Assembly (NCBI GenBank): GCA_016756855.1
Contig: JAESPD010000023.1
Span: 1-53,420, forward strand
Source: a gamma proteobacterium endosymbiont of Lamellibrachia anaximandri
GTDB lineage: Bacteria > Pseudomonadota > Gammaproteobacteria > Chromatiales > Chromatiaceae
DNA: 53,420 nt
Direction of reading: 5' to 3'
Positions within the stretch are counted from its first letter, which is position 1; every line of letters starts with the position of its first letter. Below, one piece after another: positions 9,888-53,420 of the stretch. Position numbers and translations under genes: made by a program. The notes under the pieces are model-generated. The model was not told the origin of the DNA and ran no database searches. It saw only the letters and a list, made by a program, of their open reading frames with translations.

Positions 9888-9895
9888 AAGTTTTC

Positions 9896-16117: not shown

Positions 16118-16127
16118 TTAAGCGCTT

Positions 16128-16153: not shown

Positions 16154-16212
16154 ATACGTGAAAGCAATTCGAAATAACAATGGCAGTTACATATTCATAA
16201 GGAGTAACGCCG

Positions 16213-17544: not shown

Positions 17545-17580
17545 CGTCAAGCCGGAAGACGATCAAAGGAGATAAGCAAA

Positions 17581-19008: not shown

Positions 19009-19023
19009 CGGGGAGGGATAACA

Positions 19024-28000: not shown

Positions 28001-28885
28001 GGATGGAACAGCTACAGCACCCGGTGACTACACGGCAATCAACGGCACCCTGACCTTCCTTGATGGCGAACTGAGCAAGACTCTCACACTCATCCCAACC
28101 GGCGATACCGTTTGGGAACCGAGTGAGACCTTCACCCTGATCCTGAGCAATGCGGTGGATGCATCTCTGGGTCTGGCCACTGCGACAGTGACCATCACCG
28201 ATGACGATACACGAAATGCAGGCACACTGGCTCTGAACAGCACTACAGTGACTCTGCCGGAGAGTGGTCCTGCGGTGATCATGACCGTGAACCGCACTGG
28301 CGGTTCGGACGGTACGGTGACGGTTGATTACGCCACGGCAGATGGTACCGCCACTGCGCCTGGTGACTACACGGCCATCAGCGGCACCCTGATCTTCCTC
28401 AACGGAGAGACCAGCAAGACAGTCACACTGACTCCCATCAATGACACGACTTGGGAGCCGAGTGAAGATTTCACACTGACCCTCTCCAATCCGGTGGATG
28501 CCACCCTGGGCCTGGCCACTGCCACAGTGACCGTCACTGATGATGATCCACGCAGTGCTGGTACCCTGGACCTGAGCAACGCTATCGCAACCCTTTCCGA
28601 GAGTGGTCCCGCTGTCATGCTGACTGTGGACCGCACTGGCGGCTCGGACGGTACGGTAAGCGTGGACTATGCCACGACGGATGGCACCGCCACCGCGCCA
28701 GGTGACTACACGGCCATCAACGGTACCTTGACCTTCCTTGATGGCGAACTGAGCAAGACTCTCACACTCAACCCAACCGGCGATACCATTTGGGAGCCGA
28801 GTGAGACCTTCACCCTGAGCCTCTCCAACCCGGTGGATGCTACCCTGGGCCTGGCCTCCGCCACGGTAACCATCACCGATGACGA
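23800..28885 (+). repeat. Tandem 339-bp repeats encoding Calx-beta domains
   Basis: Fifteen units of about 339 bp (113 codons). Toward the 3' half the units alternate between two subtypes (ALNSTTVTLPESGPAVIMTV and ALSSATATLSESGPAITLTV). This makes a 678-bp higher-order period, with long identical DNA stretches at 26160-28500. The pattern indicates recent pairwise duplication or gene conversion. Confidence 0.9.
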
Positions 28886-36295: not shown

Positions 36296-38341
36296 TCAGC
36301 GTGAGAGGCGGAACATATCGAGCCACTCTGACCCGGATCCTGTCTGCTCCAGCCGTTCGACGATGGCAGTGTGGTTATTGAGTCGGGCCAGATCAATTGC
36401 CTTTTCGCGTTTTTTATTTCTCAGATTGGGATTGGCATTGCCGACAAGCAGCCGCTTGATGACTGCCTGGTGTCCCTCCCGCGCCGCGAGCATCAGGGCC
36501 GAGTCGCCGTTGTGGTTTCTCCGGTCGGGATTGCTGCCCTTTTGCAGCAGCATCCCGACGATCTTTTCGTGTCCGAGGTGGGATGCCATCATCAGCGCCG
36601 TATTGCCGGTATTACCTGTCTGGTCGAGGTTGCTGTTGTCCTTGATCAGAATCCCAACCATGCCTGTTTCTCCCCGGGATGCTGCGAGGATTAGCAGAGT
36701 CTCTTTCTGCCGATATTGGCGATGGAGATTAGTTTTCTTTGCCGATAGCAGTTTCAGACCCTCCAGGGTTCCCAGTTTGGCTGCGAACCAAAGGGCATCG
36801 TGCCCAGTGTCGTTGACGTTACCGGGATTGGCCTTGGCATCCAGCAGCATTCGGATAAAGTCAGCCTCTTCCATGCCGGCGGCGAGCATAAGAGGGGTTG
36901 TGCCGTCTCGTTTCCTGCTATCGGCCGTTGCACCATGACCGAGCAGTAACGAAACAATATCCCGATGCGCGTTTGTCACCGCCGCATGTATCGGCGAGGT
37001 GCCGTCATTCAGTGCCGTATCAACCTTTGCGCCTCGGGCGAGCAACTCCCGTACAATCTTGATCTGTCCTTTTTTTGCCGCATGGAATAGGGGGGTGGCG
37101 CCCTCTTCGGTGGCGATTTCGGGATTGGCCCCTGCATTCAGCAGTCGCTGCACGATTTTCATCTGTCCCTGCCAGGCAGCCCGGGCGAGGGCGGTAAGGC
37201 CTTCGGGATCCTGGGCGTTGATGTCGGCACCCTGTTTCAGCAGGGCGTCGACCAGGGAGTCGCTGCCGCGCCAGGCTGCGATATTAAGGGTTGGCCAGCC
37301 TGCAAAGGGTTGTTCCTCTCCCGCAACCATCAGGCCGTCAGAGAAGGCGGAGAGTTGCGGTGTCCGCTTACTGACGCGCTGCTTGGTTTGGGTGGGGGGG
37401 GTTATACCAGCCTGTTCCAGTTGGAGTACCACTTTTTGGTGTTTCCGCTGCCAGGCCAGTTGCATGGCTGACTGCCCCTTTTTGTTGTCGGCTCTTGGGT
37501 TGGCACCCCGTTTTATTAACAGCGTTGTGATGGCAGTCAGCCCCTTGCCGGCGGCAAGGATCAGTGCGGTATTGCCTGCCGGATCCCGCTGCTCGATGTC
37601 GGCGCCGGCATCGAGCAGCAGGCGGGTCTCTTCAAGCCGGTCTAGACGGACGGCGGTATGCAGCGGTGTGTTGCCCAGTCTGTCTCCGATGGAGATATCG
37701 GCACCCATTTTCAACAGTTCGGCGACAGTTTGTGTATGTCCGTTGAGTACCGCCGAGTAGAGGGCGGTGCGCAGATCTGAGTCGGTGGCGTCGATATCTG
37801 CGCCTTGCCGCAGGAGTTCACGCACAAGCCCCAAGTCGCCTGAAGCCGATGCATCGATCAAGCGTGCAGAAATACCTTCACCATTTTTTGCGGCCATGCT
37901 TGCGGTGAGTTGTTCAACCTTTCGCTTAGCCTGGCGATGCCCCTGTTCCGCTGCCGACTGGTACCAGCGCAGGGCCTGTTCCCGGTCGGTGGAGACTCCC
38001 CAGCCATATTCATAGAGATTGCCCAGGTTGTATTGGGCTTTGGCAAAACCCTGCTCTGCTGCCTTGCCGAACCAGAAGAAGGCCTTGGAAAAATCCTTTT
38101 TTACCCCTTTTCCGGCCCGGTACATGCCGGCAACGGCGTATTGAGCCTTCGCATCTCCGGCCTCAGCCAGTTGCTCGTAGATCTCGACCGCTTTCTCGAA
38201 TTGGCGCATCCGCACTGCGGTCCGCGCCTCCTCCAGTGTCTCCGCAGCAACCGACAGGGGCATGATGGAGAGCAGAAGAGAGCAGAGCAGGGTAACGGTT
38301 AAACCCGGGAAATGCCGGAGACTGCGATCATGCGGTGCCAT
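36296..38341 (-). CDS. Exported Sel1-repeat and ankyrin-repeat protein
   Basis: A 681-residue protein with signal peptide 1-33. Two to three Sel1/TPR-like repeats occupy about 40-145 (AQYAVAGMYRAGKGVKKDFSKAF, AQYNLGNLYEYGWGV). About twelve to thirteen ankyrin repeats follow, from 160 to 665, with the typical GNTALMMASHLGHEKIV pattern. It is a periplasmic scaffold by prediction. Its ATG overlaps the end of the upstream Fe-S flavoprotein gene by 14 bases, so the two are translationally coupled. It probably assists assembly of, or interacts with, the electron-transfer proteins of this locus, but no specific partner is visible. Confidence 0.85.
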   Translation of the reverse strand: MAPHDRSLRHFPGLTVTLLCSLLLSIMPLSVAAETLEEARTAVRMRQFEKAVEIYEQLAEAGDAKAQYAVAGMYRAGKGVKKDFSKAFFWFGKAAEQGFAKAQYNLGNLYEYGWGVSTDREQALRWYQSAAEQGHRQAKRKVEQLTASMAAKNGEGISARLIDASASGDLGLVRELLRQGADIDATDSDLRTALYSAVLNGHTQTVAELLKMGADISIGDRLGNTPLHTAVRLDRLEETRLLLDAGADIEQRDPAGNTALILAAGKGLTAITTLLIKRGANPRADNKKGQSAMQLAWQRKHQKVVLQLEQAGITPPTQTKQRVSKRTPQLSAFSDGLMVAGEEQPFAGWPTLNIAAWRGSDSLVDALLKQGADINAQDPEGLTALARAAWQGQMKIVQRLLNAGANPEIATEEGATPLFHAAKKGQIKIVRELLARGAKVDTALNDGTSPIHAAVTNAHRDIVSLLLGHGATADSRKRDGTTPLMLAAGMEEADFIRMLLDAKANPGNVNDTGHDALWFAAKLGTLEGLKLLSAKKTNLHRQYRQKETLLILAASRGETGMVGILIKDNSNLDQTGNTGNTALMMASHLGHEKIVGMLLQKGSNPDRRNHNGDSALMLAAREGHQAVIKRLLVGNANPNLRNKKREKAIDLARLNNHTAIVERLEQTGSGSEWLDMFRLSR

Positions 38342-39647
38342 GTTTTGTGTCGACTTCTACGCCTATCTGTTTTAGGAATCCGGTCGGCAGGATACCGCCG
38401 GCGCAGACGATGGCCGCATCGTTAGGTATCTCGATGAGGTCTTTCTGTTGTTCAATGGTGACATGTTTCTCGGTGAATGACTTGATGTTTGAGTTCATCA
38501 GGACCTGCAAGGTTCCATTCTCATCTGCGGTTTCCACTTTCTGCCGGTTTTTCTTTTTGGCCCGGGAGAAGGAGCCGCTGCGGTAGGAGAGGGTGACCGT
38601 AGTCCCCGGCTGTTCCGCGATGGAGGTGGCAGCCTCCAGGGCGCTGTCACCGCCACCCACCACCAGGACGTGTTCTCCACGGTATTGTTCCGGGTCAATC
38701 AACCGATAGACCACCTTGCTCTGTTCCTCCCCTGGAACGCCGAGTTTGCGTGGAGTGCCACGCCGGCCGATGGCTAGCAATACCTTGAGTGTATTGTACT
38801 CGCCCTTCGAGGTGGTGATCCGGTATCCAGTCTTGCCGTTAGGCTCGATATTTTCCACCTTCTCCTGGTAGTTGATGTGGATCCCGGTCTCCTTTTCCAC
38901 CCGGCTCCAGAATTCGAGGAGTTCCTCCTTAGTGGTTTCGGTAAACTTTACCTTGCCCACCAAGGGAAGTTCCACCGGTGCCGTCATCACCAGTTTGCCA
39001 CGGGGAAACTGAAACACAGTGCCTCCCAGAGAATCCTGCTCCACCACCAGGTATTTCAAGCCCAATTCGTGGGCCCGAAGCGCGGCGGAGAAACCCGCCG
39101 GGCCGGCCCCCACGATGACAATGTCGTAGTCATGGGAGTGGTGCTTGTCGTGGCCTTCCATCAGTGCATCGAGCGCCTTGTATCCCTGTTCGATGGCGTT
39201 GCGGATCAGCCCCATGCCTCCCAGCTCCCCGGCGATGAAGATGTCGGGCATGGTGGTTTCAAAATTGGGTTTGAGCACCGGGATATCGACCCCCCGCCGT
39301 TCGGTGCCGAACACCAGGGTGATGGCATCAAAAGGGCAGGCGATTTTGCAAGCGCCATGGCCGATACAGTTGGTGGGGGCGATCAGCTTGGCTTTGCCGC
39401 CGATCAGTCCGAGAACAGGATGGTTGTTCTGTTCGGGGCAAGCGATGACGCAGGTGCCGCAACCCATGCACCGTTTGGGATCTATCACCGGATGCAGGGA
39501 GGCAGGCTCGGTCAGACCGGCTTCAGATTCCTCTTGCCAGATTGAGTGGCTGTGGCGATGTTTAAGCTTCTTCAGACCCAGGTAGATGCCCCAGATCAGA
39601 AGCAGTGGGGGCAGGTAGTAGCTGAGGAGCAATACGGACTCTTTCAT
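38328..39647 (-). CDS. Membrane-anchored Fe-S/FAD NAD(P)H-type oxidoreductase
   Basis: A 439-residue protein with an N-terminal transmembrane helix (about 8-25). A ferredoxin-like part has C60-x2-C63-x2-C66-x3-C70-P and a second set C94, H97, C100, C104-P, where His replaces a cysteine. A thioredoxin-reductase-like fold follows, with a FAD site VIVGAGPAGFSAA (~177-189) and a nucleotide site VLVVGGGDSALEAA (~336-349). The redox-active CXXC of true thioredoxin reductases is absent (QFPRGKLVMTAPVE at the equivalent place). This family is known beside multihaem cytochromes. Its likely role is feeding electrons from cytoplasmic NAD(P)H into the b-type cytochrome encoded nearby on the other strand. 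Confidence 0.85.
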   Translation of the reverse strand: MKESVLLLSYYLPPLLLIWGIYLGLKKLKHRHSHSIWQEESEAGLTEPASLHPVIDPKRCMGCGTCVIACPEQNNHPVLGLIGGKAKLIAPTNCIGHGACKIACPFDAITLVFGTERRGVDIPVLKPNFETTMPDIFIAGELGGMGLIRNAIEQGYKALDALMEGHDKHHSHDYDIVIVGAGPAGFSAALRAHELGLKYLVVEQDSLGGTVFQFPRGKLVMTAPVELPLVGKVKFTETTKEELLEFWSRVEKETGIHINYQEKVENIEPNGKTGYRITTSKGEYNTLKVLLAIGRRGTPRKLGVPGEEQSKVVYRLIDPEQYRGEHVLVVGGGDSALEAATSIAEQPGTTVTLSYRSGSFSRAKKKNRQKVETADENGTLQVLMNSNIKSFTEKHVTIEQQKDLIEIPNDAAIVCAGGILPTGFLKQIGVEVDTKHGTA

Positions 39648-39705
39648 ATTTTAGCGTAGCTGTAGGGCGGTTACGATGTGATCGGCAGTTTGATGAAAAT
39701 ATTGA

Positions 39706-39762
39706 ATAATCATATACGAGGCGAAGTCGTAATGAGCGGAACTATGTTGAATTCTGTACAAA
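39706..39762 (+). pseudogene. Duplicated 5' end of the b-type cytochrome gene (remnant)
   Basis: Bases 39719-39762 match 41670-41713 at 37 of 44 positions; weaker similarity extends 13 bases upstream. The shared block contains the leader AGGCGAAGTCG, the ATG (39732; 41683) and the first codons: MSGTMLNSV here and MSGIVLNSV in the real gene. After about ten codons homology is lost. It looks like an old partial duplication of the gene start, lying divergent to the Fe-S flavoprotein. Confidence 0.65.
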
Positions 39763-39950
39763 GGGGGTCAGGAATTAAGGGGTTTTGTGGAAGCTATGTG
39801 ATTGTCCCAGGTTCTTGCCGGCAAGCATCAATTTGCGGGTGGTGCTATACATCGGCAAGATAGGGCGGGAGACAATTCTCCCTGTCAGGGTGAATTGTGG
39901 CAACCGCTTGGTTTACACTTTTCTCTCGATCGGCTGTCAAAAAGTAACGA

Positions 39951-40607
39951 TTAGTGGGAGACGATACCTTTATTCAATGCATAAGTGGTAAGCGCCGATG
40001 CATTGTGAAGATCGAGTTTCTTCATCAGATTGGCCCGGTGTTTTTCCACTGTTTTTATACTGATACAGAGGAATTCTGCCATGCTCTTGTTGGTGTGTCC
40101 CTCCGCCACCAATTTCAGGATCTGTTTCTCACGCTTGGTGATGGTGTCCCATTCGGTCGCAGGTTCAGAATTCTTTTGACCGACCAGATAACCCTGTACA
40201 ACTTTGTCGGTGATGTCGGGGCTGAGGTAGGTCTTGCCATTCATTACCCGCTCAACCGCAACCAGGAGTTCAGAATGGGTTGCATCTTTGAGGATATACC
40301 CATTAGCGCCCGCATTCAGGCTTGCCAGGACATACTCCTCCGCATTGTGGACGGTTAATACCAGGATCTTTGTCTCAGGAAACCTTTTACGTATCTCCTG
40401 CACGGCGTCCATCCCGTTCATGCTGGGCATACTCAGATCCATGATCGCCAAGTCCGGTTTCTTGTCCGCGACACAGCGTATGGCTTCGCGTCCGTTCTCC
40501 GCTTCTCCGACAACGCTGTAATCTGTAGTGCCTTCCAGCAGCGATTTTAATCCTGCCCTCAGAATTGTATGGTCTTCAGCGATAATGACTCGTAATTGTT
40601 TTTCCAT
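39951..40607 (-). CDS. Orphan NarL/FixJ-family response regulator
   Basis: A 218-residue regulator with receiver domain D57 (AIMDLSMPSMNG), acidic pair E11-D12 and K107 (YILKDA). A LuxR-type helix-turn-helix covers about 150-205 (ITKREKQILKLVAEGHTNKSMAEFL...KTVEKHRANLMKKL). MEKQLRVIIAEDH at 40607 with a G-rich ribosome site is preferred to the in-frame ATG at 40718, whose extra 37 residues are not family-like. No kinase gene is adjacent. It sits between the divergent flavoprotein/ankyrin and cytochrome gene sets and probably regulates one or both. Confidence 0.9.
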   Translation of the reverse strand: MEKQLRVIIAEDHTILRAGLKSLLEGTTDYSVVGEAENGREAIRCVADKKPDLAIMDLSMPSMNGMDAVQEIRKRFPETKILVLTVHNAEEYVLASLNAGANGYILKDATHSELLVAVERVMNGKTYLSPDITDKVVQGYLVGQKNSEPATEWDTITKREKQILKLVAEGHTNKSMAEFLCISIKTVEKHRANLMKKLDLHNASALTTYALNKGIVSH

Positions 40608-41053
40608 GCACCCCCCACGCGCTGCAATAACGGAATTTAGTACTTGAATCACTGGGCGAAAACGCCCCCCTTCTACCCGATCCTCAAGTTGGCGGAATTG
40701 CCTGTATTCCTTATGCACTAGGGATTATAGCCAAACTTTCTCCGGATTCATTCGACGATATTACGCAGTTTGCTGTTCAGTGCAGCCATGATAATAGGGT
40801 GTTAACTAGAAATATACATGTTCGTAGTTCCAATATTAAGGTAAGTCATTGTTTATCAGTAATATGCTGGATGTACTATTGGCTACTCCCCCAGAAGGAA
40901 ACTACGGTGTTTACCTACCTATTAAATCCATCTTTTTCGATTGGGAAACTAGGAGATTTTCACTCTGATCTTGCCCAATATTACCGGCAGTTATTATTTT
41001 TCTATCACCTAAATTTTCACTGATAGAGAAGAAAAGCTAAGAGGTGCTGGAAG
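40608..41053. other. AT-rich intergenic region between regulator and cytochrome operon
   Basis: About 450 bases without a convincing gene. The composition is clearly more AT-rich than the flanks, as expected for divergent promoters. A 74-codon frame (40799-41023) lacks a ribosome site and recognisable sequence. No exact promoter can be defended. Confidence 0.4.
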
Positions 41054-41245
41054 ATGACGGGAATTGGTAGACCGGAAAAGGTCAATGATGATGCGACAGC
41101 GGTGGCGTTCTATACGATCGCCGCGCTTTTACTCGTATGTGTCGTCGTTGTGGTCATTTATTACTCTTTTGAGAATACCGCAGCTGTACCTGTTACCACT
41201 GCAGAGGCGCAGACGTTGATATTCGAGGATTCGGGGTGCACATGA
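41054..41245 (+). CDS. Small single-pass membrane protein
   Basis: A 63-residue protein with a soluble N-terminus and one strong transmembrane helix (about 19-43, rich in Val/Leu/Ile, ending IYY). The short tail is probably periplasmic. The ATG is preceded by AAGAGG and GGAAG, a convincing ribosome site. I know no family for it. It could be an accessory subunit of the membrane cytochrome encoded 440 bases downstream. Confidence that it is real rests on the ribosome site and helix only. Confidence 0.5.
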   Translation: MTGIGRPEKVNDDATAVAFYTIAALLLVCVVVVVIYYSFENTAAVPVTTAEAQTLIFEDSGCT

Positions 41246-41682
41246 TGCGCTATTTAGATCCAAATACTGCTTATCGATAGGTATTTTCTCTGTTTGGTCT
41301 GGGGTCGTAGCGGGAGGGGCATGCAATCCTGGCCGAGTGGCTCACTCATCCTGCCAGTTCCGTGCGGTGTGGCGTTAATTTGCAATTTCTGCCTCAGATA
41401 GACGCTGTCGCCCATGAACAATGCGAACTGTTTCATGTTTCTGCACTGCACAGCAATCATGGTGTGATCAACGGCTCATGTTTTGGGATTTGTTGCCGAT
41501 CAGGTGTAGGCAGGGAAGATCGGGTCCGTTACAATTTAATCGTAAATTGGTAAAAAATTCCCAATATTGACGGTGGATTTTTCGGGCAGCCGAATCGGCG
41601 TCGCCAAAAAGGCGGTTTCTACACAGAAGCAAGGCGCTATCGATATGGAAACACCAGACAATTATAGACAGGCGAAGTCGCA
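41246..41682 (+). other. Non-coding region with a palindromic operator candidate
   Basis: No gene is recognised. A perfect inverted repeat CAATTTA-ATCG-TAAATTG lies at 41532-41549, about 135 bases before the cytochrome b ATG. The leader block starting at 41657 is the part duplicated at 39706-39762. Confidence 0.4.
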
Positions 41683-42609
41683 ATGAGTGGAATTGTGTTG
41701 AATTCTGTGAAACAGACGGAAAAAAAACGGGCTGCGGCCGACGGTAGCGATGTGCTGCCGGAAAATGGTCAGTTTTCAAGTTTTGGGGGCTGGTTACTTA
41801 CGCTAATTATTACGTTAGTGCTCTATTCGGGCTGGATCAACCGCGATGAACTGATCCTGACGCCTGAAGAGGGATTGGGGTATGCGCTCGGCATCGTCGG
41901 CGGAAGCATGATGCTGTTGCTGTTGCTCTATTCGTTGCGTAAACGGGTTGGGTGGATGAAGCGAATGCTTACCGTGAAATTCTGGTTTCGTTTCCATATG
42001 TTAATGGGTGTGCTCGGCCCGACTCTGGTAATGCTTCACAGCAATTTTCATCTCGGTTCGCTCAATGGCCGGGTGGCCTTGTTCAGCATGATTACCGTGG
42101 CGATCAGCGGTCTGGCGGGCCGTTTTGTCTATTCCAGGATCCACTACGGCCTGCATGGCGGCAAAATCAAATTCGACAGACTGAAATCGGATTCCGAACT
42201 GTTGACCCGTAAGCTTGGCCGGTTGTTCGAACTGGCGCCAGGGACCAAAGAGCGTTTGGCTCGGTTCGAAGGACGGGTCGTCAACGTGCATGAAAGCCTG
42301 TTCAAGAGCTTCGTCAACTGGCTGCGTATCCGCTTCGAGGCCCCTTTACTCTACAGGCACATCCAAAGGGAGTTTAACCGGCAGTTGAAGCAGTCTGCCC
42401 AAGAGTTGGGTTGGAAGCCACAGCGAACCCGCAGCTATAGAAAAACAGTGCGGTTGCTCATCGGTACGCACAAGCGTGCTTCGGTTCGTATTCTTGAGCT
42501 GCATTTTTATGAGCGCCTCTTTTCCCTGTGGCATGTCCTGCATCTGCCGCTGTTTTTCATGATGTTGGTGACTGGAGTCATCCATATCTATGCAGTCCAC
42601 ACTTACTGA
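41683..42609 (+). CDS. Di-haem b-type membrane cytochrome
   Basis: A 308-residue integral membrane protein with helices at about 35-51, 66-84, 102-120, 131-152 and 283-305. The 150-280 segment is basic and cytoplasmic. Candidate haem b ligands are H105 and H119/H123 in helix 3 and H284/H287 and H301/H306 in the last helix; their spacing suits two stacked haems as in cytochrome b561/ferric-reductase-like proteins. It lacks flavin or quinone motifs. It probably moves electrons across the inner membrane, from the Fe-S flavoprotein or quinol, to the multihaem cytochromes encoded immediately downstream. Exact family is uncertain. It is the first long gene of the rightward operon. Confidence 0.75.
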   Translation: MSGIVLNSVKQTEKKRAAADGSDVLPENGQFSSFGGWLLTLIITLVLYSGWINRDELILTPEEGLGYALGIVGGSMMLLLLLYSLRKRVGWMKRMLTVKFWFRFHMLMGVLGPTLVMLHSNFHLGSLNGRVALFSMITVAISGLAGRFVYSRIHYGLHGGKIKFDRLKSDSELLTRKLGRLFELAPGTKERLARFEGRVVNVHESLFKSFVNWLRIRFEAPLLYRHIQREFNRQLKQSAQELGWKPQRTRSYRKTVRLLIGTHKRASVRILELHFYERLFSLWHVLHLPLFFMMLVTGVIHIYAVHTY

Positions 42610-42641
42610 GAGAGAGCCTTGACCGGTTCTGTGACACTGTT

Positions 42642-44210
42642 TTGCGGCTTCCACATACCTTTATTTTGCTGATGTTTGCTCTCGTCCCAAATACAACCGT
42701 CCACGCCTTCGGGGTTTTCGATCGTCTGTTGATGCCCGGTGACGTGATCGAGGGGCATGCGGCGTTCGAGGATGAGTGTGAAAAATGCCACGAAAAACTT
42801 GAACAGAAAAGACAGAGTCAGCTCTGCCTTGGTTGCCATGACCACGAAAATATCGCCAGTGATATTAAGCTGAAGGAGGGTTACCACGGCCGCAAGGCGC
42901 AACCCGACAAGGTTTCCTGCAAGCACTGTCATACTGACCACAAGGGGCGCGGCGCCCGGGTAGTATTGTTCGATGAGGGCTCCTTTTTACACGAAGCGGC
43001 GGATTTCAAGTTGAGGGGGCTGCACAAACAGGTTCCCTGCAACGCCTGCCATGAACAGGGCAAAAAGTATTTAGTAGAGTTTTCCTTATGTGTCGATTGC
43101 CACAAGGAGGCTGATCCCCATCGCGGCGGTCTGGGTGAGAAGTGCGATAAATGTCATGTGGAGCGTGGTTGGAAGCATTTCGATTTCGACCACAACAAAG
43201 ACACCGAATATAAGCTCGAAGGCAAGCACCTGGATCTCAAGTGCAAGCTCTGCCACCCCGGTGAGCGTTACAAGAAGACACCCAAGGAGTGTCATCTTTG
43301 CCATCAGATCAATGACATCCATGGCGGGCAGTTTGGTGAAAAGTGCAAGGAGTGCCACACCACCGAGAAGTGGAACGAAGTCAGGTTCGATCACGACCGC
43401 GATACCAAATACAAGCTGCAATACCGGCATCGCAAGCTTGCTTGCAACAGTTGCCACAAGGAGCCTCTGTACAAGAAAAAACTGGAAAAGGATTGTTACG
43501 CCTGCCACCGCCTGGATGACGTGCATCGAGGTGTAAACGGCAAGGAGTGTCAAAACTGCCACTCCACCAAGGGGTGGGCTGAGATTGGTTTTGATCACGC
43601 AAAAGATACTAAATTCATCCTTGACGGCCGCCATACAAAATTACCTTGTGAGGCCTGTCATACCTCTGCGCAGAAAGAGAAACAGGCGCTGGGAACCACC
43701 TGCATCGCCTGTCATGTCGATGATGACGTGCATAAGGAGCAACAGGGCAAGGCATGTGTCCGGTGCCACAACACTGATGGTTGGGACGCGAAAGTTTTTT
43801 TCGACCATGACCTGACCCATTTCCCCTTGATCGGCCAGCACAACGTGCTGGCCTGCGAAGAGTGCCATCTCTCCAGCGAATACAAGGATGCGAAGACCGA
43901 GTGCGTCGCCTGTCACACCGGTGATGACTCGCACGATGGGCGTTTGTCGGAGCAATGTGAAACGTGCCATTCGCCGAACGGATGGACGCTATGGATGTTC
44001 GATCACAATGCTCAAACCGAATTTAAGCTCGAAGGCAGCCACGAAGGGCTGAACTGCCACGCCTGCCATCGGGAAAAAATCTCGGACAAAAAGCTGGGCC
44101 AGAGTTGTTACAGCTGTCATCGGCAGCAAGATAAACACCGCGGAGCCTACGGCAGAAAATGCAAACGCTGCCATAACAGCGACTCCTTCAGCGAAGTGAA
44201 AATGAAATGA
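42642..44210 (+). CDS. 21-haem periplasmic c-type cytochrome
   Basis: The coding frame is open from a GTG at 42528 inside the cytochrome b gene. The likely start is the TTG at 42642, giving a signal peptide (LRLPHTFILLMFALVPNTTVHAFG); this is a choice, not certain. The mature ~500 residues hold 21 CXXCH motifs in repeats of about 70 residues, each with three motifs plus conserved extra His. The pattern is CxxCH-x3-GW...FDH-x-DTxxxLxGxH-x2-LxCxxCH...CxxCH...D-VH-x-G. It resembles class III-like/doubled-CXXCH cytochromes. It would form a long haem wire spanning the periplasm. Its stop overlaps the next gene's earliest ATG (ATGA). Confidence 0.85.
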   Translation: MRLPHTFILLMFALVPNTTVHAFGVFDRLLMPGDVIEGHAAFEDECEKCHEKLEQKRQSQLCLGCHDHENIASDIKLKEGYHGRKAQPDKVSCKHCHTDHKGRGARVVLFDEGSFLHEAADFKLRGLHKQVPCNACHEQGKKYLVEFSLCVDCHKEADPHRGGLGEKCDKCHVERGWKHFDFDHNKDTEYKLEGKHLDLKCKLCHPGERYKKTPKECHLCHQINDIHGGQFGEKCKECHTTEKWNEVRFDHDRDTKYKLQYRHRKLACNSCHKEPLYKKKLEKDCYACHRLDDVHRGVNGKECQNCHSTKGWAEIGFDHAKDTKFILDGRHTKLPCEACHTSAQKEKQALGTTCIACHVDDDVHKEQQGKACVRCHNTDGWDAKVFFDHDLTHFPLIGQHNVLACEECHLSSEYKDAKTECVACHTGDDSHDGRLSEQCETCHSPNGWTLWMFDHNAQTEFKLEGSHEGLNCHACHREKISDKKLGQSCYSCHRQQDKHRGAYGRKCKRCHNSDSFSEVKMK

Positions 44211-44245
44211 TTATTGCGATAAACGCAAACGGTGAGACTAGACTA

Positions 44246-47200
44246 ATGGCAAAGGTAAAACTGATGAGAAGCAGATCGATCGGCAGAATGGTGACGATGC
44301 TGCTCCTTACCCTCTCCCTGACAGCATTTCAGACTGTTTGGAACAGTACATCCGCTGCGGAGTCCTTCGATCATTTTATGACCGGTTTTCCCCTGACTGG
44401 TGGACACAAGCGGGTCGAGTGCGAGCAGTGCCACACCAATGCCATTTTCAAGGGGACGCCCACCCGTTGCGCGAGTTGCCATAATGGCGCCCGGGCGGAG
44501 GGCAAGGGAGCGAACCACATAAAGAGCGAAGATACCTGCGATAACTGCCATACCTCGTCAACCTGGCGGGTAGCCCGTTTCGATCACGGCAGTGTCACAG
44601 ACGCATGTGAACGTTGCCACGACGGGGGCAAAGCTGCGGGCAAGACGGTTGCCCACATAAGCACTACCAACAACTGTCAGTTCTGTCACTCGTCTTTCAG
44701 TTGGCGCAAGGTGCGTCGGGTCGACCATGTTGCGGTTCTTGGCGCCTGTACCAGCTGCCATAACGGAAGTAGCGCACTGGGCAAGGGCGGCGACCACCCG
44801 CAGACCACTGCGCAGTGCGACACCTGCCACTCCACCGGTCGGTGGGGGATCGCCAAGCTCGATCACACCCAACTTGACACCGCTTCCTGTACACGTTGCC
44901 ACAACGGCGCCAAGGCCACCGGCAAACCGGGCAGACACATCAGGACTACCGAACAGTGCGACACCTGCCACACGACCCAGACTTGGCGTGGCGGTGTCTT
45001 TGATCATGCCAATGTTGCCGGAACCTGTTCATCCTGTCACAACAGCGTCAATGCGTCGGGCAAGGGCGGTAAACACATCAAGACCAGTGCCCAGTGTGAC
45101 ACTTGTCATACGACTCAGACATGGCTTGGCGGCAGCTTTGACCATGCTGACGCAGCGGGTAGCTGCAGCTCCTGCCACAATGGGGCGAATGCCACCGGCA
45201 AGCACTCCTCGCACATTGTGACGACGGGGCAGTGTGACACTTGCCACACGACTCAGACATGGCTTGGCGGCAGATTCGATCACGCCAATGCAACGGGTAG
45301 CTGCAGCTCCTGCCACAATGGAGCGAACGCCGCCGGCAAGCACTCTACACACATAACAACGGTGGAACAGTGCGATACCTGCCACACCACGCAAACCTGG
45401 CGTACCGGCACCTTTGATCATGCAAATGTCACCGGCACCTGCACCTCCTGCCATAACGGCAGCAGCGCCACCGGCAAGCACGGCTCCCATGTGACCACAG
45501 CTTCCCAGTGCGACACCTGCCATATATCGACCAAGGCCTGGACCTCGGTCAACTTCAGGCACGAGAATGCCGCCGGCAGGTGCTCCAGCTGTCATAATGG
45601 TATTACTTCAGCCGGTAAGAGTGCCGGCCATGTGAATACTGCTGCCCAGTGTGATGTCTGCCATACCTCGGAGGCGAACTGGAAGAGCGTGCGCTTCGAT
45701 CATGGGAGTGTGAGCGGTACTTGCTCAAGCTGTCACAACGGAGCCACGGCGACCGGTAAACACTCAAGCCATGTTCAGACCAGTGGCGAATGCAGTCGTT
45801 GTCATATCTCCAACTCGAATTGGACCAGCGTGCGTTTCGACCACGGTGCGGCAAGCGGTTCCTGCAACACTTGTCACAATGGGACGACGGCCACCGGCAA
45901 GAACTCCGGTCATGTGCAGACTACCGCCCAGTGCGATGCCTGCCACACATCCCAGACCTCCTGGAGCAGTGTGCGCTTTGATCACAGCAACGTGACCGGC
46001 AGTTGTGCAACGTGTCACAACGGTTCCACCGCTACCGGCAAGCGCAGTACTCACATCCAGACAACTGCTGCCTGCGATACCTGTCACACCACCACTACAA
46101 CCTGGCTCGTGGGTACCTTCCGCCACGATGGCGTGTCAGGAACCTGTAGCAGCTGTCACAACGGCACATCGGCTACGGGTAAGCACTCCAGCCATGTCTT
46201 AACCACTGGCCAGTGCGATAGCTGCCATATATCGACCAACGCATGGAATACAGTACGCTTCGATCACGGCCTGGTCTCCGGCAGCTGTGCGAGTTGTCAT
46301 AATGGCACCACGGCTACCGGTAAACACAGTGGTCATGTGCAGACGACTGCCGGTTGCGAAACCTGCCATATCTCACAGACGGGCTGGACCGCAGTGCGTT
46401 TTGATCACGCCGGAGTCTCCGGCAGCTGCGCGACTTGCCACAACGGTACTACCGCAACCGGCAAGCACAGCGCCCATGTGCAGACCACCGCCGGCTGTGA
46501 AACCTGCCATATCTCGCAGACGGGCTGGACCGCCGTGCGGTTTGACCACGCCGGAGTCACCGGCAGCTGCGCGAGCTGCCACAACGGCACCACTGCGACC
46601 GGCAAGCACAGTGGCCATGTGCAGACCACCGCTGGTTGTGATACCTGCCATATCTCGCAGACGGGCTGGACCGCAGTGCGGTTTGACCACGCCGGAGTCA
46701 CCGGCAGCTGCGCGAGCTGCCACAACGGCACCACCGCCACCGGCAAAAACAGCGCCCATGTGCAGACCACTGCAGGCTGCGAAACCTGCCATATCTCGCA
46801 GACGGGCTGGACCGCAGTGCGTTTTGACCACGCTGGAGTCACCGGTAGCTGTGCAAGCTGCCACAACGGCACCACTGCCACCGGCAAGCACAGTGGTCAT
46901 GTGCAGACCACCGCAGGTTGCGATACCTGCCATATCTCGCAGACGAGCTGGAGCGCAGTGAGGTTTGACCACGCCGGAGTCACCGGCAGCTGCGCGAGCT
47001 GCCACAACGGCACCACCGCCACCGGCAAGCACAGCAGTCATATCCAGACTTCTGCCGGTTGTGAAACCTGTCATATCTCGCAGACGAGCTGGACCGCAGT
47101 GCGCCTCGACCATACCGGAGTCACCGGGAGTTGTGCGAGCTGTCATAACGGCACCACTGCCACCGGCAAACACAGCAGTCATATCCAGACCACTGCCGGT

Positions 47201-47830
47201 TGCGATACCTGCCATATCTCGCAGACGAACTGGACCGCAGTGCGTTTCGATCACGGAGGAGTTACGGGAACTTGCCAGAGCTGCCACAACGGCACCTCCG
47301 CCACCGGCAAGCACAGCAGCCATGTCCAGACCACGGCGGATTGTGATAGCTGTCACCTTTCGCAAACCACCTGGACTTCGGTGCGCTTCGATCACAGCAC
47401 GGTGACAGGTAGCTGTTCCACCTGCCACAACGGCAATCAGGCGGAGGGCAAGCACGCCGGTCATTTCCAGACCACGCAGCAGTGCGATAGCTGTCACCGT
47501 ACCACCGGTTGGCTGCCGACCCTGGTCTATCGTCATAATTCGGGAAGTTATCCGGGGGATCACCGCGTTAACCTGGCCTGCACCACGTGCCATGCAAGTA
47601 ACAGTCAGGTGGTGACCTGGCGTAACGCAGGTTATGCTCCCGACTGTGCGGGTTGCCACGCCGGGGATTATGAATCGGGTCCGCACAAGAAGCACGAGAA
47701 CCCCGACCGCAAGTATACGGTTACCGAACTCCGTGACTGCAGCGGTCCATGTCATGTCTATACTGACAGTTCAATGACGACGATAAAGAAGTACAGACAG
47801 CGTGAGCACAGTGTGAGCGGAGGCTGGTGA
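44246..47830 (+). CDS. Giant c-type cytochrome with 47 CXXCH motifs
   Basis: Nearly 1,200 residues. ATG candidates are 44207 (overlapping the previous stop), 44246 and 44264 (AAGG upstream); each leads into a signal peptide ending NSTSAA. By hand count there are 47 CXXCH motifs plus one CX3CH (CSGPCH) at the C-terminus. The body is a tandem array of a 47-residue unit with two CXXCH, e.g. CDTCHISQTGWTAVRFDH then CASCHNGTTATGK. Conserved His at FDH and at GHVQTT are probable sixth ligands, so haems would be bis-His. About 21 units occur. The first and last units diverge while the middle ones are nearly identical. An extended filament or wire reaching the outer membrane is likely; the function itself is inferred. 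Confidence 0.85.
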   Translation: MAKVKLMRSRSIGRMVTMLLLTLSLTAFQTVWNSTSAAESFDHFMTGFPLTGGHKRVECEQCHTNAIFKGTPTRCASCHNGARAEGKGANHIKSEDTCDNCHTSSTWRVARFDHGSVTDACERCHDGGKAAGKTVAHISTTNNCQFCHSSFSWRKVRRVDHVAVLGACTSCHNGSSALGKGGDHPQTTAQCDTCHSTGRWGIAKLDHTQLDTASCTRCHNGAKATGKPGRHIRTTEQCDTCHTTQTWRGGVFDHANVAGTCSSCHNSVNASGKGGKHIKTSAQCDTCHTTQTWLGGSFDHADAAGSCSSCHNGANATGKHSSHIVTTGQCDTCHTTQTWLGGRFDHANATGSCSSCHNGANAAGKHSTHITTVEQCDTCHTTQTWRTGTFDHANVTGTCTSCHNGSSATGKHGSHVTTASQCDTCHISTKAWTSVNFRHENAAGRCSSCHNGITSAGKSAGHVNTAAQCDVCHTSEANWKSVRFDHGSVSGTCSSCHNGATATGKHSSHVQTSGECSRCHISNSNWTSVRFDHGAASGSCNTCHNGTTATGKNSGHVQTTAQCDACHTSQTSWSSVRFDHSNVTGSCATCHNGSTATGKRSTHIQTTAACDTCHTTTTTWLVGTFRHDGVSGTCSSCHNGTSATGKHSSHVLTTGQCDSCHISTNAWNTVRFDHGLVSGSCASCHNGTTATGKHSGHVQTTAGCETCHISQTGWTAVRFDHAGVSGSCATCHNGTTATGKHSAHVQTTAGCETCHISQTGWTAVRFDHAGVTGSCASCHNGTTATGKHSGHVQTTAGCDTCHISQTGWTAVRFDHAGVTGSCASCHNGTTATGKNSAHVQTTAGCETCHISQTGWTAVRFDHAGVTGSCASCHNGTTATGKHSGHVQTTAGCDTCHISQTSWSAVRFDHAGVTGSCASCHNGTTATGKHSSHIQTSAGCETCHISQTSWTAVRLDHTGVTGSCASCHNGTTATGKHSSHIQTTAGCDTCHISQTNWTAVRFDHGGVTGTCQSCHNGTSATGKHSSHVQTTADCDSCHLSQTTWTSVRFDHSTVTGSCSTCHNGNQAEGKHAGHFQTTQQCDSCHRTTGWLPTLVYRHNSGSYPGDHRVNLACTTCHASNSQVVTWRNAGYAPDCAGCHAGDYESGPHKKHENPDRKYTVTELRDCSGPCHVYTDSSMTTIKKYRQREHSVSGGW
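46270..47340 (+). repeat. Near-identical 141-bp tandem repeats in the giant cytochrome gene
   Basis: Units of 141 bp (47 codons), seven to eight in a row, differ mostly at synonymous sites. More diverged units of the same length extend back to about 44520. Local homogeneity indicates recent unit expansion or gene conversion, and the copy number may differ between strains. Confidence 0.9.
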
Positions 47831-47911
47831 ATCCTCGTCAGGGGATTCATCGCCTCTTGGGGGTTGTATCGAACCAACATGTTTACAAAACAATAATAGA
47901 CAAGGTATGTA

Positions 47912-50431
47912 ATGAAAAAAATAGCGGGAAAGTTCTGGGCAGCCACTCTGTTGATGCTGCTGTCGCTATCGATAACCACCGGAGCTATGGCCAAGTCGCG
48001 GGTGATGGATCGGATCGATGCCGGGTTCGGGGAGGAGGAGAATCGAATCTCGATCTTTTTCAATCTCCCAGTGCGTGTGGTCAGCGATCTGGTGAACAGC
48101 GCCAGAAACGAGATTGCGATTCGAGTGAAACCGGTTGTCACCCCGGGTACGGAAGAGGAATTTCTCACCGGTGACGAGACCCTCTCCTGGAAGCCGAGCG
48201 CAGAAATCCCGCTGGAACGGGTCGTCTTCACCGGACAGCTGATCGGCAACTCCACCATGTTGCTCTCATTCTCTACCTCGGTTGGTGAGTATGAGATTAC
48301 TCAGGGAAAAGGCTTTTTCTCGATTTCTGTGGTGCTGAAAAAGGAGAAAAAGGTTGAAAGCATAAAGCTTGAGGAGCCGAAGGGGGGGGCGCTGTTCGAT
48401 GTGCCGCCCACGGAGATTCCTGCAGTCTCCGAACTTCCTGCTGTAGTGGTACAGCCGGGAGACAAGCCGGAATTCGTGGACGGAGATTTCGCCCTGAACC
48501 TGCATTCTCAGCAGCAGCCGATCGATTTCAAAAAGGTTGCGCCGGTGCCTGTGCCAACGGGACGACGGCTCTATACCACGCAGACGGAGGTCAACGACCA
48601 GCAGTGGTACCGGCTGCGTCTGGGTTTCTTCCGATCTGCTGCCGAGGCGGAACGGTTCAAAAAGGAGATCCGCCACTTCTATCCCAGTAGTTGGGTGGAT
48701 CGGGTATCGGCCGAAGAGAAGGCCCGTATTCAGGGAGACACCAGTGCGCTACCGGAAGCGGGGGAGGCACCGCTGATGTTACCGAAACAGGAGGTGAAAC
48801 CTGTTCCGGAACGGCTTGCCCGGATGATGGAGAAGGCCAGGGAGATCATGACCGCCCAGGATTATCCAAAGGCTATCCGCATGCTGACGGCGATCCTGGA
48901 GGAACCGGACAATCTATTTGCCAAGGAGGCGCTCGAATTACTTGGTCTGGCGCGGGAGCGCAATGGTCAGATTGCTCATGCCAAGGCGGAGTACCGCCGT
49001 TACCTGGAGCAGTATCCCGAGGGTCCTGACTCTGTGCGGGTGAACCAGCGTCTCGTCGGCCTGATTTCGGCGGCTGAGCAACCCAAGGATAAGCTGCGCG
49101 AGCCGACCCGGGCAGTTGTAGCCGAGCGGGAAGCGGAGTGGGAGATTTTCGGTAGTTTTTTTCAGTCTTATCAGCGGGACGGCATCGAGAGTGATTTTGT
49201 TGACGATGACGAGAGTGTCACCCGTTCTCAGGTCAATAACAGCATCGATCTGAGTGTGCGTCGTTCCAGTGCCGACGTCGACATGCGGGTGCAGTTGAAC
49301 GGCTCCTATGACATCGATCTGTTGGACACTGGGTCGGGCAACCAGGAAGCACTGACCGATGCTTTTTTCGAGGTGGAACGACGCGCCGAGGGCGTGGTCG
49401 GGCGTTTCGGTCGTCAGCGCTTCCGTTCGAGCGGTATCCTCAACCGGTTTGATGGGGGGGTCATCGGTTATCAGTTCTCCGAGGACATCAGGCTTAACGT
49501 CTATTCGGGTATCCCGGTGGAGAAATCCAGCGATGTCTTTATTCGCGACGACAAGTGGTTCGTCGGCGGAAATGCAGAGTTGGCCTCACTCTTCTACGAT
49601 ATCGACTTCACCCTGTTCGCCATCGAGCAACGGGTCGATCACCTGGTGGACCGCAGGGCAGTGGGCGGTGAGGCACGCTATTTTGACGATCAACGCTCGT
49701 TCTTCGGCCTGCTGGATTACGATATCTTTCATAATCGGCTGTCGACCTTTCTGGCGCAGACCAACTGGACGCTGAACAGCGATACCCAGCTCTACTTCAA
49801 TTATGACTATCGCACCAGTCCGATCCTGACCACTTTCAATGCACTGCAGGGGCAGACCGTAGAGACCATCGAAGAACTCGGCCAGACCTATACCGATGAC
49901 GAGATCTACGCTCTGGCTGAGGATCGCTCTGCCCGAAGCCATGTGGTTTCTCTGGGTGGTACGCGCTCGCTGGCGGAAGATTTTCAGCTCAGTGGCGATC
50001 TCACCATCTCCAATGTGGGCGATACACCGGCATCAGGGGGGGTGGAAGCGACGCCTTCGACCGGGAATGAGTTTTTCTATACCCTACAGGTACTCAAGAA
50101 TAATCTGTTGAAGGAGGGGGATATCGGCATCCTCAGCCTGCGCTATTCAGATGCCAATACCTCCAACACCTATTCCATCAGCGCCAACAGCCGTTACCCG
50201 ATTACCAATCTCTGGAGAATCAACCCACGGCTCAATCTCTCGTACCGCGACAATAACGATGGTGGAACCCGTATCACTGCCGGCGGCACTCTGCAGGCGG
50301 ACTACCGCTTCAGAAGCGACCTGGTGTTCGAGGTGGAGGGCGGCGGCAACTGGCATAAAGAGGAGACCTTGCTGTCTACAGATTCCTTTCTCGATTACTT
50401 TTTCTCTGCTGGATATCGCTGGAGTTTCTAA
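47912..50431 (+). CDS. Outer-membrane beta-barrel protein with periplasmic SPOR and TPR domains
   Basis: An 839-residue protein with signal peptide 1-27. An N-terminal beta domain resembling AMIN-type modules lies at about 30-150, a linker follows, and a SPOR-like peptidoglycan-binding domain covers about 220-270 (WYRLRLGFFRSAAEAERFKKEI). TPR repeats cover 305-385 (AREIMTAQDYPKAIRMLTAILEEPDNLFAKEALELLGLA). From ~405 to the end come alternating amphipathic strands ending FSAGYRWSF, with the C-terminal Phe typical of outer-membrane barrels. It lies 81 bases after the 47-motif cytochrome. It probably acts as the outer-membrane porin or docking partner of the cytochromes, analogous to but not homologous by eye with MtrB/PioB. 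AAGG precedes the ATG. Confidence 0.75.
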   Translation: MKKIAGKFWAATLLMLLSLSITTGAMAKSRVMDRIDAGFGEEENRISIFFNLPVRVVSDLVNSARNEIAIRVKPVVTPGTEEEFLTGDETLSWKPSAEIPLERVVFTGQLIGNSTMLLSFSTSVGEYEITQGKGFFSISVVLKKEKKVESIKLEEPKGGALFDVPPTEIPAVSELPAVVVQPGDKPEFVDGDFALNLHSQQQPIDFKKVAPVPVPTGRRLYTTQTEVNDQQWYRLRLGFFRSAAEAERFKKEIRHFYPSSWVDRVSAEEKARIQGDTSALPEAGEAPLMLPKQEVKPVPERLARMMEKAREIMTAQDYPKAIRMLTAILEEPDNLFAKEALELLGLARERNGQIAHAKAEYRRYLEQYPEGPDSVRVNQRLVGLISAAEQPKDKLREPTRAVVAEREAEWEIFGSFFQSYQRDGIESDFVDDDESVTRSQVNNSIDLSVRRSSADVDMRVQLNGSYDIDLLDTGSGNQEALTDAFFEVERRAEGVVGRFGRQRFRSSGILNRFDGGVIGYQFSEDIRLNVYSGIPVEKSSDVFIRDDKWFVGGNAELASLFYDIDFTLFAIEQRVDHLVDRRAVGGEARYFDDQRSFFGLLDYDIFHNRLSTFLAQTNWTLNSDTQLYFNYDYRTSPILTTFNALQGQTVETIEELGQTYTDDEIYALAEDRSARSHVVSLGGTRSLAEDFQLSGDLTISNVGDTPASGGVEATPSTGNEFFYTLQVLKNNLLKEGDIGILSLRYSDANTSNTYSISANSRYPITNLWRINPRLNLSYRDNNDGGTRITAGGTLQADYRFRSDLVFEVEGGGNWHKEETLLSTDSFLDYFFSAGYRWSF

Positions 50432-53100: not shown

Positions 53101-53420
53101 GTGTGCCGTAGAGGCACAGATAAGGCCGGTCGTACGCGACTTGGCTTACTGAGCTGTAAGCTCAGAGAGAGATGGTGGTAGGCCCACCGGAGTCTGCCGT
53201 CGGTGGTCGGCTTCAAACCCCCTCAAGCTGCCGATGTTAAGAGTATCGGTGGTGAGCATTGAGGAAACGATGAGGCAATGACCTCGTCAGGTACGATATC
53301 GAGAGGCGAGTAAAACCGAACCTATGTTGACGCGTCGAGAACCCGATATGACATCAGAACCGGGGTTGCATCCTAACCCCGGGATAAGATTGCGAGTGAA
53401 TGCCGAATGCTGCGCAATCG
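53101..53420 (+). mobile_element. Group II intron, 5' portion (domain I), antisense to cusA, runs off window
   Basis: The sequence starts GTGTG, the GUGYG 5' consensus, exactly where cusA homology ends. The six bases before it, GGGATG (IBS1, 53095-53100), pair with CATCCT (53369-53374, one G-T pair). CATCCT sits in the loop of a perfect 8-bp hairpin (arms CCGGGGTT and AACCCCGG, 53360-53382), the expected EBS1 placement. The remainder is rich in stem-loops with runs such as GAGGCAATGACCTCGTCAGG, typical of domain I. The intron-encoded reverse transcriptase would lie beyond 53420. It is in the opposite orientation to the interrupted gene, so it cannot be spliced from that mRNA. Confidence 0.75.

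What the first reader, a model, noticed from the sequence alone, without database searches (positions are those of the whole stretch)
38328..50431. Candidate undescribed transmembrane-to-surface electron conduit
In 12 kb there is an Fe-S/FAD oxidoreductase, an ankyrin/Sel1 scaffold, an orphan regulator, a small membrane protein, a di-haem membrane cytochrome b, a 21-haem cytochrome, a cytochrome with 47 CXXCH motifs and an outer-membrane barrel with SPOR/TPR domains. The order of parts follows a path from cytoplasm to cell surface. The cytochromes differ in repeat architecture from MtrA/MtrC, OmcS or PioA. Gene content is seen directly; the route is inferred.
Basis: partly seen in the sequence, partly recalled or inferred. 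Interest (0 to 1): 0.87.

Follow-up and report, generated by a model that had tools for sequence, protein, structure and literature searches.

The report
PCC3 electron conduit with flavoprotein partner
A tubeworm-symbiont genome carries a known type of gene cluster (PCC3) thought to wire electrons through the cell envelope, and comparison with other genomes shows that it nearly always comes with a flavin/iron-sulfur enzyme, which suggests it may push electrons out of the cell rather than take them in.

Summary
The genes exist as described, but the conduit is not undescribed: it is PCC3 (porin-cytochrome c complex 3; He et al. 2017, PMC5566968), reported there even in vent tubeworm symbionts. 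The window's genome belongs with seep-tubeworm endosymbionts. Its membrane protein carries the PCC3 fingerprint (two WX3HX13H motifs plus SGXXG), invariant in 13 of 13 aligned proteins. The first cytochrome has 21 haem motifs, the second 47 CXXCH plus one CX3CH; the porin models as a 22-strand barrel.

Not mentioned in the six PCC3 papers I word-searched: the Fe-S/FAD oxidoreductase is a core PCC3 part. In a 369-genome class sample 42 genomes have the membrane protein, 43 the flavoprotein, 41 both. A phylum sample (299) gives the same 4 genomes for both. A Bacteroidota plasmid has the two genes back to back. The ankyrin protein is also usually present and looks exported, so periplasmic. The regulator and small membrane protein look lineage-specific.

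Best mechanism: NAD(P)H, FAD and [4Fe-4S] feed di-haem b, then the 21-haem wire, the porin and the surface cytochrome, i.e. NOX-like electron export, possibly reversible. Direction and surface exposure are inferred.

The parts
38328..39647 (-). Membrane-anchored 2x[4Fe-4S]/FAD/NAD(P) oxidoreductase (439 aa); TrxR/YpdA/FNR-type flavin fold without CXXC, second cluster motif C-x2-H-x2-C-x3-C; core partner of PCC3
   Evidence: Pfam; alignment A2; ligands in 112 aligned rows; co-occurrence; model and fold search
36296..38341 (-). Sel1/ankyrin-repeat protein (681 aa) with predicted signal peptide, so periplasmic; gene overlaps the flavoprotein gene by 14 bases
   Evidence: Pfam; N-termini of 55 aligned proteins; synteny
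39951..40718 (-). NarL-type response regulator (internal ATG at residue 38 probably the true start); lineage-specific neighbour, not a conserved PCC3 part
   Evidence: Pfam; synteny
41054..41245 (+). Small single-TM ORF (63 codons), matched only in the three tubeworm-symbiont loci of 80
41683..42609 (+). PCC3 inner-membrane protein, predicted di-haem b: W101/H105/H119 and W283/H287/H301, SGLAG at 142-146
   Evidence: alignment A1
42528..44210 (+). Periplasmic multihaem cytochrome, 21 CXXCH; open frame given, likely start near 42642 with signal peptide
44207..47830 (+). Repeat cytochrome, 47 CXXCH plus one CX3CH, one site per about 23.5 aa; predicted extracellular PCC3 cytochrome; overlaps the previous gene by 4 bases
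47912..50431 (+). PCC3 porin: N-terminal periplasmic SPOR/TPR part (about 1-400) and predicted 22-strand barrel (410-838), C-terminal Phe

Best explanation
The locus is a PCC3 extracellular-electron-transfer conduit, and PCC3 should be read as a system of usually six genes. A cytoplasm-facing, membrane-anchored flavoprotein takes electrons from NAD(P)H through FAD to its [4Fe-4S] centres. They pass to the di-haem b inner-membrane protein, which carries them across the inner membrane in the way NADPH oxidases and ferric reductases do. A near-fixed-length 21-haem periplasmic wire takes them to the porin, and the 48-haem cytochrome takes them to the surface and an external acceptor. The periplasmic ankyrin/Sel1 protein and the porin's SPOR/TPR part position the wire in the periplasm. 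Shown by computation: gene content, order, motifs, co-occurrence, barrel prediction. Inferred: electron route, outward direction, role of the ankyrin protein, surface location of the large cytochrome.
For: PCC3 identity: in 13 aligned proteins W101, H105, H119, S142, G143, G146, W283, H287 and H301 are invariant, the WX3HX13H x2 plus SGXXG signature of He et al.. Haem counts 21 and 47 and aa/haem near 26 fit their ranges. Partner gene: flavoprotein in 76 of the best 80 relatives' loci, and in 73 of 74 with more than 1.8 kb upstream; of the other four, three genomes hold it elsewhere. In 369 class genomes 42 have the membrane protein (E<1e-50), 43 the flavoprotein (E<=1e-50), 41 both (Fisher p 7e-51, no correction for relatedness). 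In 299 phylum genomes the same 4 have both (G000 and G142 are in both samples). The three discordant class genomes hold broken or cut clusters. G003, same genus, lacks membrane protein, porin and a close flavoprotein match. On an Emticicia plasmid the two genes are 4 bases apart, followed by two multihaem cytochromes. Chemistry: seven Fe-S ligands invariant in 112 rows (110 distinct) and Cys63 kept in 97, no CXXC in the flavin part in any, TM-like N-terminus in 109; YpdA/TrxR/FNR-like fold. A positively charged 102-111-residue loop in the membrane protein (net +6 to +22 in 13 of 13) suggests that loop is cytoplasmic. Direction: in Sideroxydans ES-1 both PCC3 clusters were down-regulated on Fe(II) relative to thiosulfate (PMC8788666 passages).
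Against: I found no experiment that tests the function of a PCC3 part in the papers seen. He et al. propose that the membrane protein exchanges electrons with quinone, in which case the flavoprotein could have another role. Co-occurrence does not prove physical contact. The first [4Fe-4S] cluster has lost one cysteine in 15 of 112 rows, the Emticicia and Nitrospira ones included. In Sideroxydans CL21 one PCC3 membrane-protein gene rose with iron-oxidising activity. The flavoprotein model has mean pLDDT 68 with the Fe-S region poorly modelled; the porin model has pTM 0.49. In one genus (G057, G324) the flavoprotein gene is on another contig with no PCC3 gene in the part fetched. In L063's genome no flavoprotein was found. 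Whether the founding Sideroxydans and Leptothrix clusters have the gene was not tested.
Confidence: 0.6

Rival explanations
1. PCC3 takes electrons in: the surface cytochrome oxidises Fe(II), Mn(II) or another solid donor, the wire passes electrons to the di-haem b protein and then to quinone; the flavoprotein is a side exit or makes NAD(P)H by reverse transport.
For: This is the model of He et al. 2017; 26 Gallionellaceae iron-oxidiser genomes have a complete predicted PCC3 (PMC10734462 passages); one PCC3 membrane-protein gene in Sideroxydans CL21 rose with iron-oxidising activity.
Against: Both ES-1 PCC3 clusters go down on Fe(II). The conserved NAD(P)H-type flavoprotein would have to run far uphill, against the membrane potential, for direct uptake (thermodynamic argument from general knowledge). 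He et al. themselves note that PCC3 is in only a few known iron oxidisers.
Confidence: 0.25
2. The flavoprotein and ankyrin gene serve assembly: they supply reductant or hold the exported chain so that dozens of haems can be attached and the wire threaded into the barrel; they are not part of the electron path.
For: Thioredoxin-reductase-like fold, exported ankyrin protein, and a CcsA cytochrome-maturation gene beside the Emticicia cluster.
Against: No redox-active CXXC in 112 of 112 flavoprotein rows and seven invariant Fe-S ligands point to one-electron transfer; it accompanies the membrane protein even in loci without a detected ankyrin gene (L100, L102, L112, L115, L117, L120, L122, L136).
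Confidence: 0.15
3. The cytochromes store charge (a capacitor) inside the periplasm rather than reach the surface.
For: Storage was suggested as one role of the many haems (passage in PMC10734462); surface location was not testable here.
Against: A conserved porin with a barrel model sits next to it; the second cytochrome varies from 7 to 73 CXXCH among 85 closed frames while the first is almost fixed, 108 of 116 closed frames having 18, 21, 24 or 27, as expected for one part spanning a fixed gap and one free to extend.
Confidence: 0.08

Closest known systems
PCC3, porin-cytochrome c complex 3 (He et al. 2017, PMC5566968)
   Same: Inner-membrane protein with two WX3HX13H and SGXXG, periplasmic cytochrome of about 21 haems, larger repeat-built cytochrome, porin; same four genes together; reported in tubeworm symbionts
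   Different: The published cluster has four genes; the words ankyrin, FAD, pyridine nucleotide and ferredoxin do not occur in the main text; its gene-cluster figure was not visible to me
MtrCAB / MtoAB / PioAB
   Same: Logic of periplasmic cytochrome, barrel and outer cytochrome
   Different: Decahaem proteins of other families; DmsE-family model TIGR03508 hits the 47-motif protein at 181 bits in 8 stretches, below its 192.2 cut-off, and does not hit the 21-motif protein
NADPH oxidase / ferric reductase (FRD); also MsrQ-type di-haem b proteins (recalled)
   Same: Two HX13H pairs in the membrane part (comparison made by He et al.) and an NAD(P)H-type flavoprotein, here a separate protein
   Different: No Pfam hit to a ferric-reductase domain and no convincing solved relative; flavoprotein is of TrxR/FNR type with Fe-S clusters
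YpdA / TrxR-type ferredoxin-NADP reductases
   Same: Flavin/NAD(P) fold of the partner
   Different: 160.7 bits against a 339.9 cut-off, no CXXC, fused membrane anchor and Fe-S module; the last FAD-binding piece appears moved ahead of the Rossmann domain (modest support)

Membership tests
PCC3 | About 300-aa inner-membrane protein with two WX3HX13H motifs and SGXXG | tested here: met
   Invariant in 13 of 13; 308 aa
PCC3 | Five transmembrane helices | tested here: inconclusive
   Simple hydropathy gave four peaks over 1.6; no dedicated predictor run
PCC3 | Periplasmic cytochrome, median 21 haems, aa/haem 22-39 | tested here: met
   21 CXXCH in a 560-codon frame; periplasmic location itself not tested
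PCC3 | Larger low-complexity repeat cytochrome | tested here: met
   47 CXXCH plus 1 CX3CH in 1207 aa, near-regular 23/24 spacing
PCC3 | That cytochrome is extracellular | not testable with these tools
   Needs surface proteomics
PCC3 | Outer-membrane barrel porin in the cluster | tested here: met
   22 strands, mean pLDDT 78.5, pTM 0.49; best fold matches are barrels such as FimD, AlgE and porins
PCC3 | Sequence relation to the founding ES-1 and Leptothrix proteins | not tested
   No named ES-1 or Leptothrix record was reached; Bradyrhizobium sp. STM 3843, which the paper names among PCC3 holders, was reached (L083, 41%)
MtrCAB/MtoAB | DmsE-family decahaem cytochrome above cut-off | tested here: not met
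   Below cut-off or absent
FRD/NOX domain | Pfam ferric-reductase domain hit | tested here: not met
   No Pfam hit at E 0.01; works-like claim rests on the motif comparison of He et al.
YpdA/TrxR disulfide reductases | Curated cut-off and, for TrxR, redox CXXC (recalled) | tested here: not met

The most novel reading that the evidence does not exclude
PCC3 is a widespread NAD(P)H-driven electron exporter: a bacterial NADPH-oxidase-like unit (separate Fe-S/FAD reductase plus di-haem b) wired to a periplasm-spanning 18/21/24-haem cable and an outer cable of up to 133 CXXCH motifs, with a periplasmic ankyrin scaffold. The flavoprotein is a circularly permuted thioredoxin-reductase-type FNR whose second [4Fe-4S] cluster has a histidine ligand. 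The usual treatment of PCC3 as a candidate iron oxidase would then have the direction reversed.
Probability: 0.4. Interest if true: 0.8.

Novelty: new member of a known kind. Interest (0 to 1): 0.55.

Why it matters
PCC3 is a recurring candidate conduit in iron-oxidiser genomes, and its substrate and direction have been open since 2017. A dedicated NAD(P)H-type flavoprotein that is present almost exactly where PCC3 is present gives a concrete entry point on the cytoplasmic side, makes the direction of electron flow testable with one purified enzyme, and offers a specific marker gene. For tubeworm and clam symbionts it suggests a way to dump excess reductant, and it warns that an ankyrin-repeat gene in a symbiont is not by itself a host-directed effector.

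Tried and rejected
Viral collection searched with the membrane protein: 10 pattern stretches, none a relative. PDB profile search with the membrane-protein alignment: only chance-level hits. The 61-residue piece thought to hold the displaced FAD segment had no significant PDB or NCBIfam match alone. With a 55-residue piece placed behind the C-terminus, three of six family models gained 7-9 bits over the same piece reversed (YpdA 168.8 against 160.9, native 158.8; lipoamide dehydrogenase 68.8 against 60.2; MerA 59.1 against 51.8), while the other three gained only 0-3 bits, so circular permutation is supported only modestly. Considered and dropped: that the regulator and the small ORF are conduit parts. 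Considered: that the ankyrin protein is the Riftia symbiont protein EGV51005 discussed as host-interacting (PMC7787665 passages); not assignable, since these 8 genomes have many ankyrin matches (27 matched stretches in G000). Host naming: GC 55% and 94-96% identity to Lamellibrachia and Escarpia symbionts place it with them; the species was not resolved. Tree-distance correlations between the parts (Spearman 0.47-0.66, 0 of 200 permutations as high) show shared descent but have no species-tree control, so I give them little weight.

Full report
What is there. The window (G000:C122, 4.26 Mb genome in 205 contigs) contains, on the minus strand, a Fe-S/FAD oxidoreductase and, overlapping it by 14 bases, an ankyrin/Sel1 gene; facing the other way are a membrane-protein gene, a 21-CXXCH cytochrome, a 47-CXXCH cytochrome and a porin. 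The 21-motif and 47-motif genes overlap by 4 bases, and the porin starts 81 bases after the latter. A response regulator and a 63-codon single-TM ORF lie in the gap between the two gene sets.

What it is. He et al. 2017 (PMC5566968; abstract, section 15 and passages seen) described PCC3: porin, extracellular cytochrome (median 34 haems), periplasmic cytochrome (median 21), and an inner-membrane protein with two WX3HX13H motifs and SGXXG. In an alignment of 13 membrane proteins (window plus 12 from other genomes or places) every one of these residues is invariant. The same paper names PCC3 in Riftia, Tevnia and Ridgeia endosymbionts. The closest named relatives of our gene are symbionts of Lamellibrachia barhami, L. 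anaximandri and Escarpia laminata at 94-96%. So the conduit is a member of a known kind.

How widespread. A scan of the genome collection (84,980 species genomes by the tool's description) returned 269 relatives of the membrane protein, of which the best 80 were kept, so this sample is tilted towards the window's own type. Record titles include Thiodiazotropha clam symbionts, Bradyrhizobium, Thiobacillus, Woeseia, Nitrospira, Nitrospinaceae and Omnitrophota bins.

The flavoprotein is a core part. In those 80 loci a homologue of the Fe-S/FAD gene (120 bits or more) lies near the membrane-protein gene in 76, and in 73 of the 74 with more than 1.8 kb of upstream sequence. It is divergent from it in 67 and co-directional in 9, so the linkage survives inversion; in two loci the gap between them is over 2.5 kb. 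Of the four without it, the genomes of L121, L137 and L128 hold it elsewhere, for L128 on a contig of the same length, about 12 kb away, beside ankyrin and porin homologues; L063's genome showed none and its contig ends just upstream. In a class-wide sample of 369 genomes, 42 hold the membrane protein at E<1e-50 (47 places) and 43 the flavoprotein at E<=1e-50; 41 hold both and 325 neither. A further 26 genomes have only weaker matches to the membrane protein, which I take to be other families and did not count as holders. The three discordant genomes are informative: G233 carries the flavoprotein beside ankyrin, porin and a cytochrome cut by the contig end, G154 carries it in two pieces with cytochrome and ankyrin pieces on a 3.5 kb contig, and G246 carries a shortened flavoprotein frame beside its membrane protein. 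Of the 47 places I fetched 40: 34 have a strong flavoprotein match in the stretch (in G090 in two pieces) and one (G246) the short piece; of the other five, one is on the same contig just outside, two are near the end of another contig next to the porin, and two (one genus) are on another contig with no PCC3 gene in the part fetched. In a phylum-wide sample of 299, the same 4 genomes have both (flavoprotein E<=1e-50, membrane protein E<=1e-30); two of these, G000 and G142, are in both samples. Inside the window's genus, 5 of 6 genomes have the membrane protein; G003 lacks it, the porin and any close flavoprotein match. In the plasmid collection the only flavoprotein match at 1e-40 (1 of 72,556 records) is on pEMTOL02 of Emticicia oligotrophica, a Bacteroidota: there a 281-aa protein with both WX3HX13H motifs and SGXXG is followed 4 bases on by the flavoprotein, then cytochromes with 23 and 40 CXXCH and a 538-aa protein that had no Pfam hit and no match to my porin profile.

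What the flavoprotein looks like. In 112 aligned rows (110 distinct; the two locus sets overlap in genomes): TM-like N-terminal stretch in 109, then C60/C63/C66/C70 (C63 is Ser or Thr in 15) and C94/H97/C100/C104, all other ligands invariant; no CXXC in the flavin part. Profile and fold searches give YpdA, thioredoxin reductase and FNR-type enzymes. The segment that should close the FAD domain seems to sit ahead of the Rossmann fold; moving it back improves three of six family scores by 7-9 bits over the reversed control and the other three by 0-3. The model itself is weak in the Fe-S region.

The ankyrin protein. Found in 64 of 80 loci, 53 of 62 with more than 4 kb upstream. All 55 aligned proteins (500-800 aa, the window's included) have a signal-like hydrophobic N-terminus by a simple hydropathy test on stop-to-stop frames. 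It is therefore most likely periplasmic. Thiobacillus loci (L120, L122, L136) lack a match, so it is common but not universal.

The cytochromes. Among 116 closed periplasmic-type frames in the two (overlapping) locus sets, 82 have 21 CXXCH, 13 have 24, 12 have 18, one has 27 and 8 have other numbers (113 distinct frames, 105 of them with those four numbers): steps of three haems, as in a rod of repeated units of about 67 residues. The 85 closed surface-type frames range from 7 to 73 CXXCH (typed by Ser+Thr above 16%, my own cut, not curated, so pieces and at least one wrong-frame ORF in L080 are included). In 77 of 85 a CX3CH or CX4CH lies within the last 45 residues (CX3CH in 56) and in 80 an aromatic residue lies within the last four. 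The longest frame seen has 133 CXXCH in 4086 codons (L207), above the 85 that He et al. reported. One near-fixed and one free length fits a periplasm-spanning rod and a surface extension.

The porin. AlphaFold2 model, mean pLDDT 78.5 but pTM 0.49, 22 strands between residues 410 and 838, with a separate N-terminal SPOR/TPR part; SPOR found in 16 of 22 and TPR_16 in 18 of 22 aligned porins; best solved matches are usher and porin barrels.

Mechanism. Positive charge of the long loop of the membrane protein (+6 to +22 in 13 of 13) and the basic stretch after the flavoprotein's anchor put the loop and the flavoprotein on the cytoplasmic side (positive-inside rule, recalled). A cytoplasmic NAD(P)H flavoprotein beside a membrane protein with two haem b sites is the arrangement of NOX and ferric reductases, which move electrons outward (recalled). 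The reverse would need to lift electrons from iron-level potentials to NAD(P)H against the membrane potential. Expression data fit: both PCC3 clusters of ES-1 go down on Fe(II) relative to thiosulfate (PMC8788666 passages). Against: a PCC3 membrane-protein gene in CL21 goes up with iron-oxidising activity (PMC12442390 passages).

Novelty check. The words ankyrin and FAD do not occur in the main texts of PMC5566968, PMC8788666, PMC12016527, PMC13386937 and PMC12442390; in PMC10734462 ankyrin is absent and FAD occurs only inside an author name. Paper searches pairing ankyrin with porin-cytochrome, or with multiheme cytochrome and porin, found nothing, nor did Thiodiazotropha or Emticicia with multiheme. 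Supplements, figures and papers outside the open library were not searchable, and the gene-cluster figures of He et al. could show these neighbours.

Noticed in passing
L207:77-12334 (G268:C17): PCC3 surface-type cytochrome frame of 4086 codons with 133 CXXCH motifs, beyond the 85 reported by He et al. 2017.
   Followed up: partly
L229:13088-21784 (NC_018749.1, Emticicia oligotrophica pEMTOL02): Compact PCC3-like gene row on a Bacteroidota plasmid: membrane protein, Fe-S/FAD protein, 23- and 40-CXXCH cytochromes, an unassigned 538-aa protein where the porin would be, with a CcsA gene just upstream.
   Followed up: partly
L058 and L060: In the L. barhami symbiont the surface cytochrome and porin are each in pieces, and in the E. 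laminata symbiont the 21-haem gene is; G003 of the same genus lacks the cluster. Decay in symbionts or assembly error.
   Followed up: no
window 7048-21705: A 9-CXXCH 861-aa cytochrome and, further on, two multicopper-oxidase-like proteins plus a third with a match below cut-off (16213-21705); looks like a second metal- or electron-related cluster upstream of PCC3.
   Followed up: no
window 22825-31301: Two long repeat ORFs overlapping by 4 bases in different frames with the same repeat; the second ends in an SCO1/SenC-like stretch (recognised from memory), perhaps a fused or mis-joined gene.
   Followed up: no
window 50574-53216 (-): CusA/CzcA-type RND pump ORF that matches its family model only from position 205, so about 200 N-terminal residues are missing near the contig end.
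   Followed up: no
C-termini of surface-type cytochromes: Conserved tail: CX3CH or CX4CH in the last 45 residues in 77 of 85 frames and an aromatic residue in the last four in 80 of 85, while repeat number varies; may dock to the porin or serve export.
   Followed up: partly
window 38328-39647 (-), residues 94-104: Ferredoxin-like motif in which the second cysteine is an invariant histidine (112 of 112 rows), so a possible His-ligated [4Fe-4S] cluster.
   Followed up: partly
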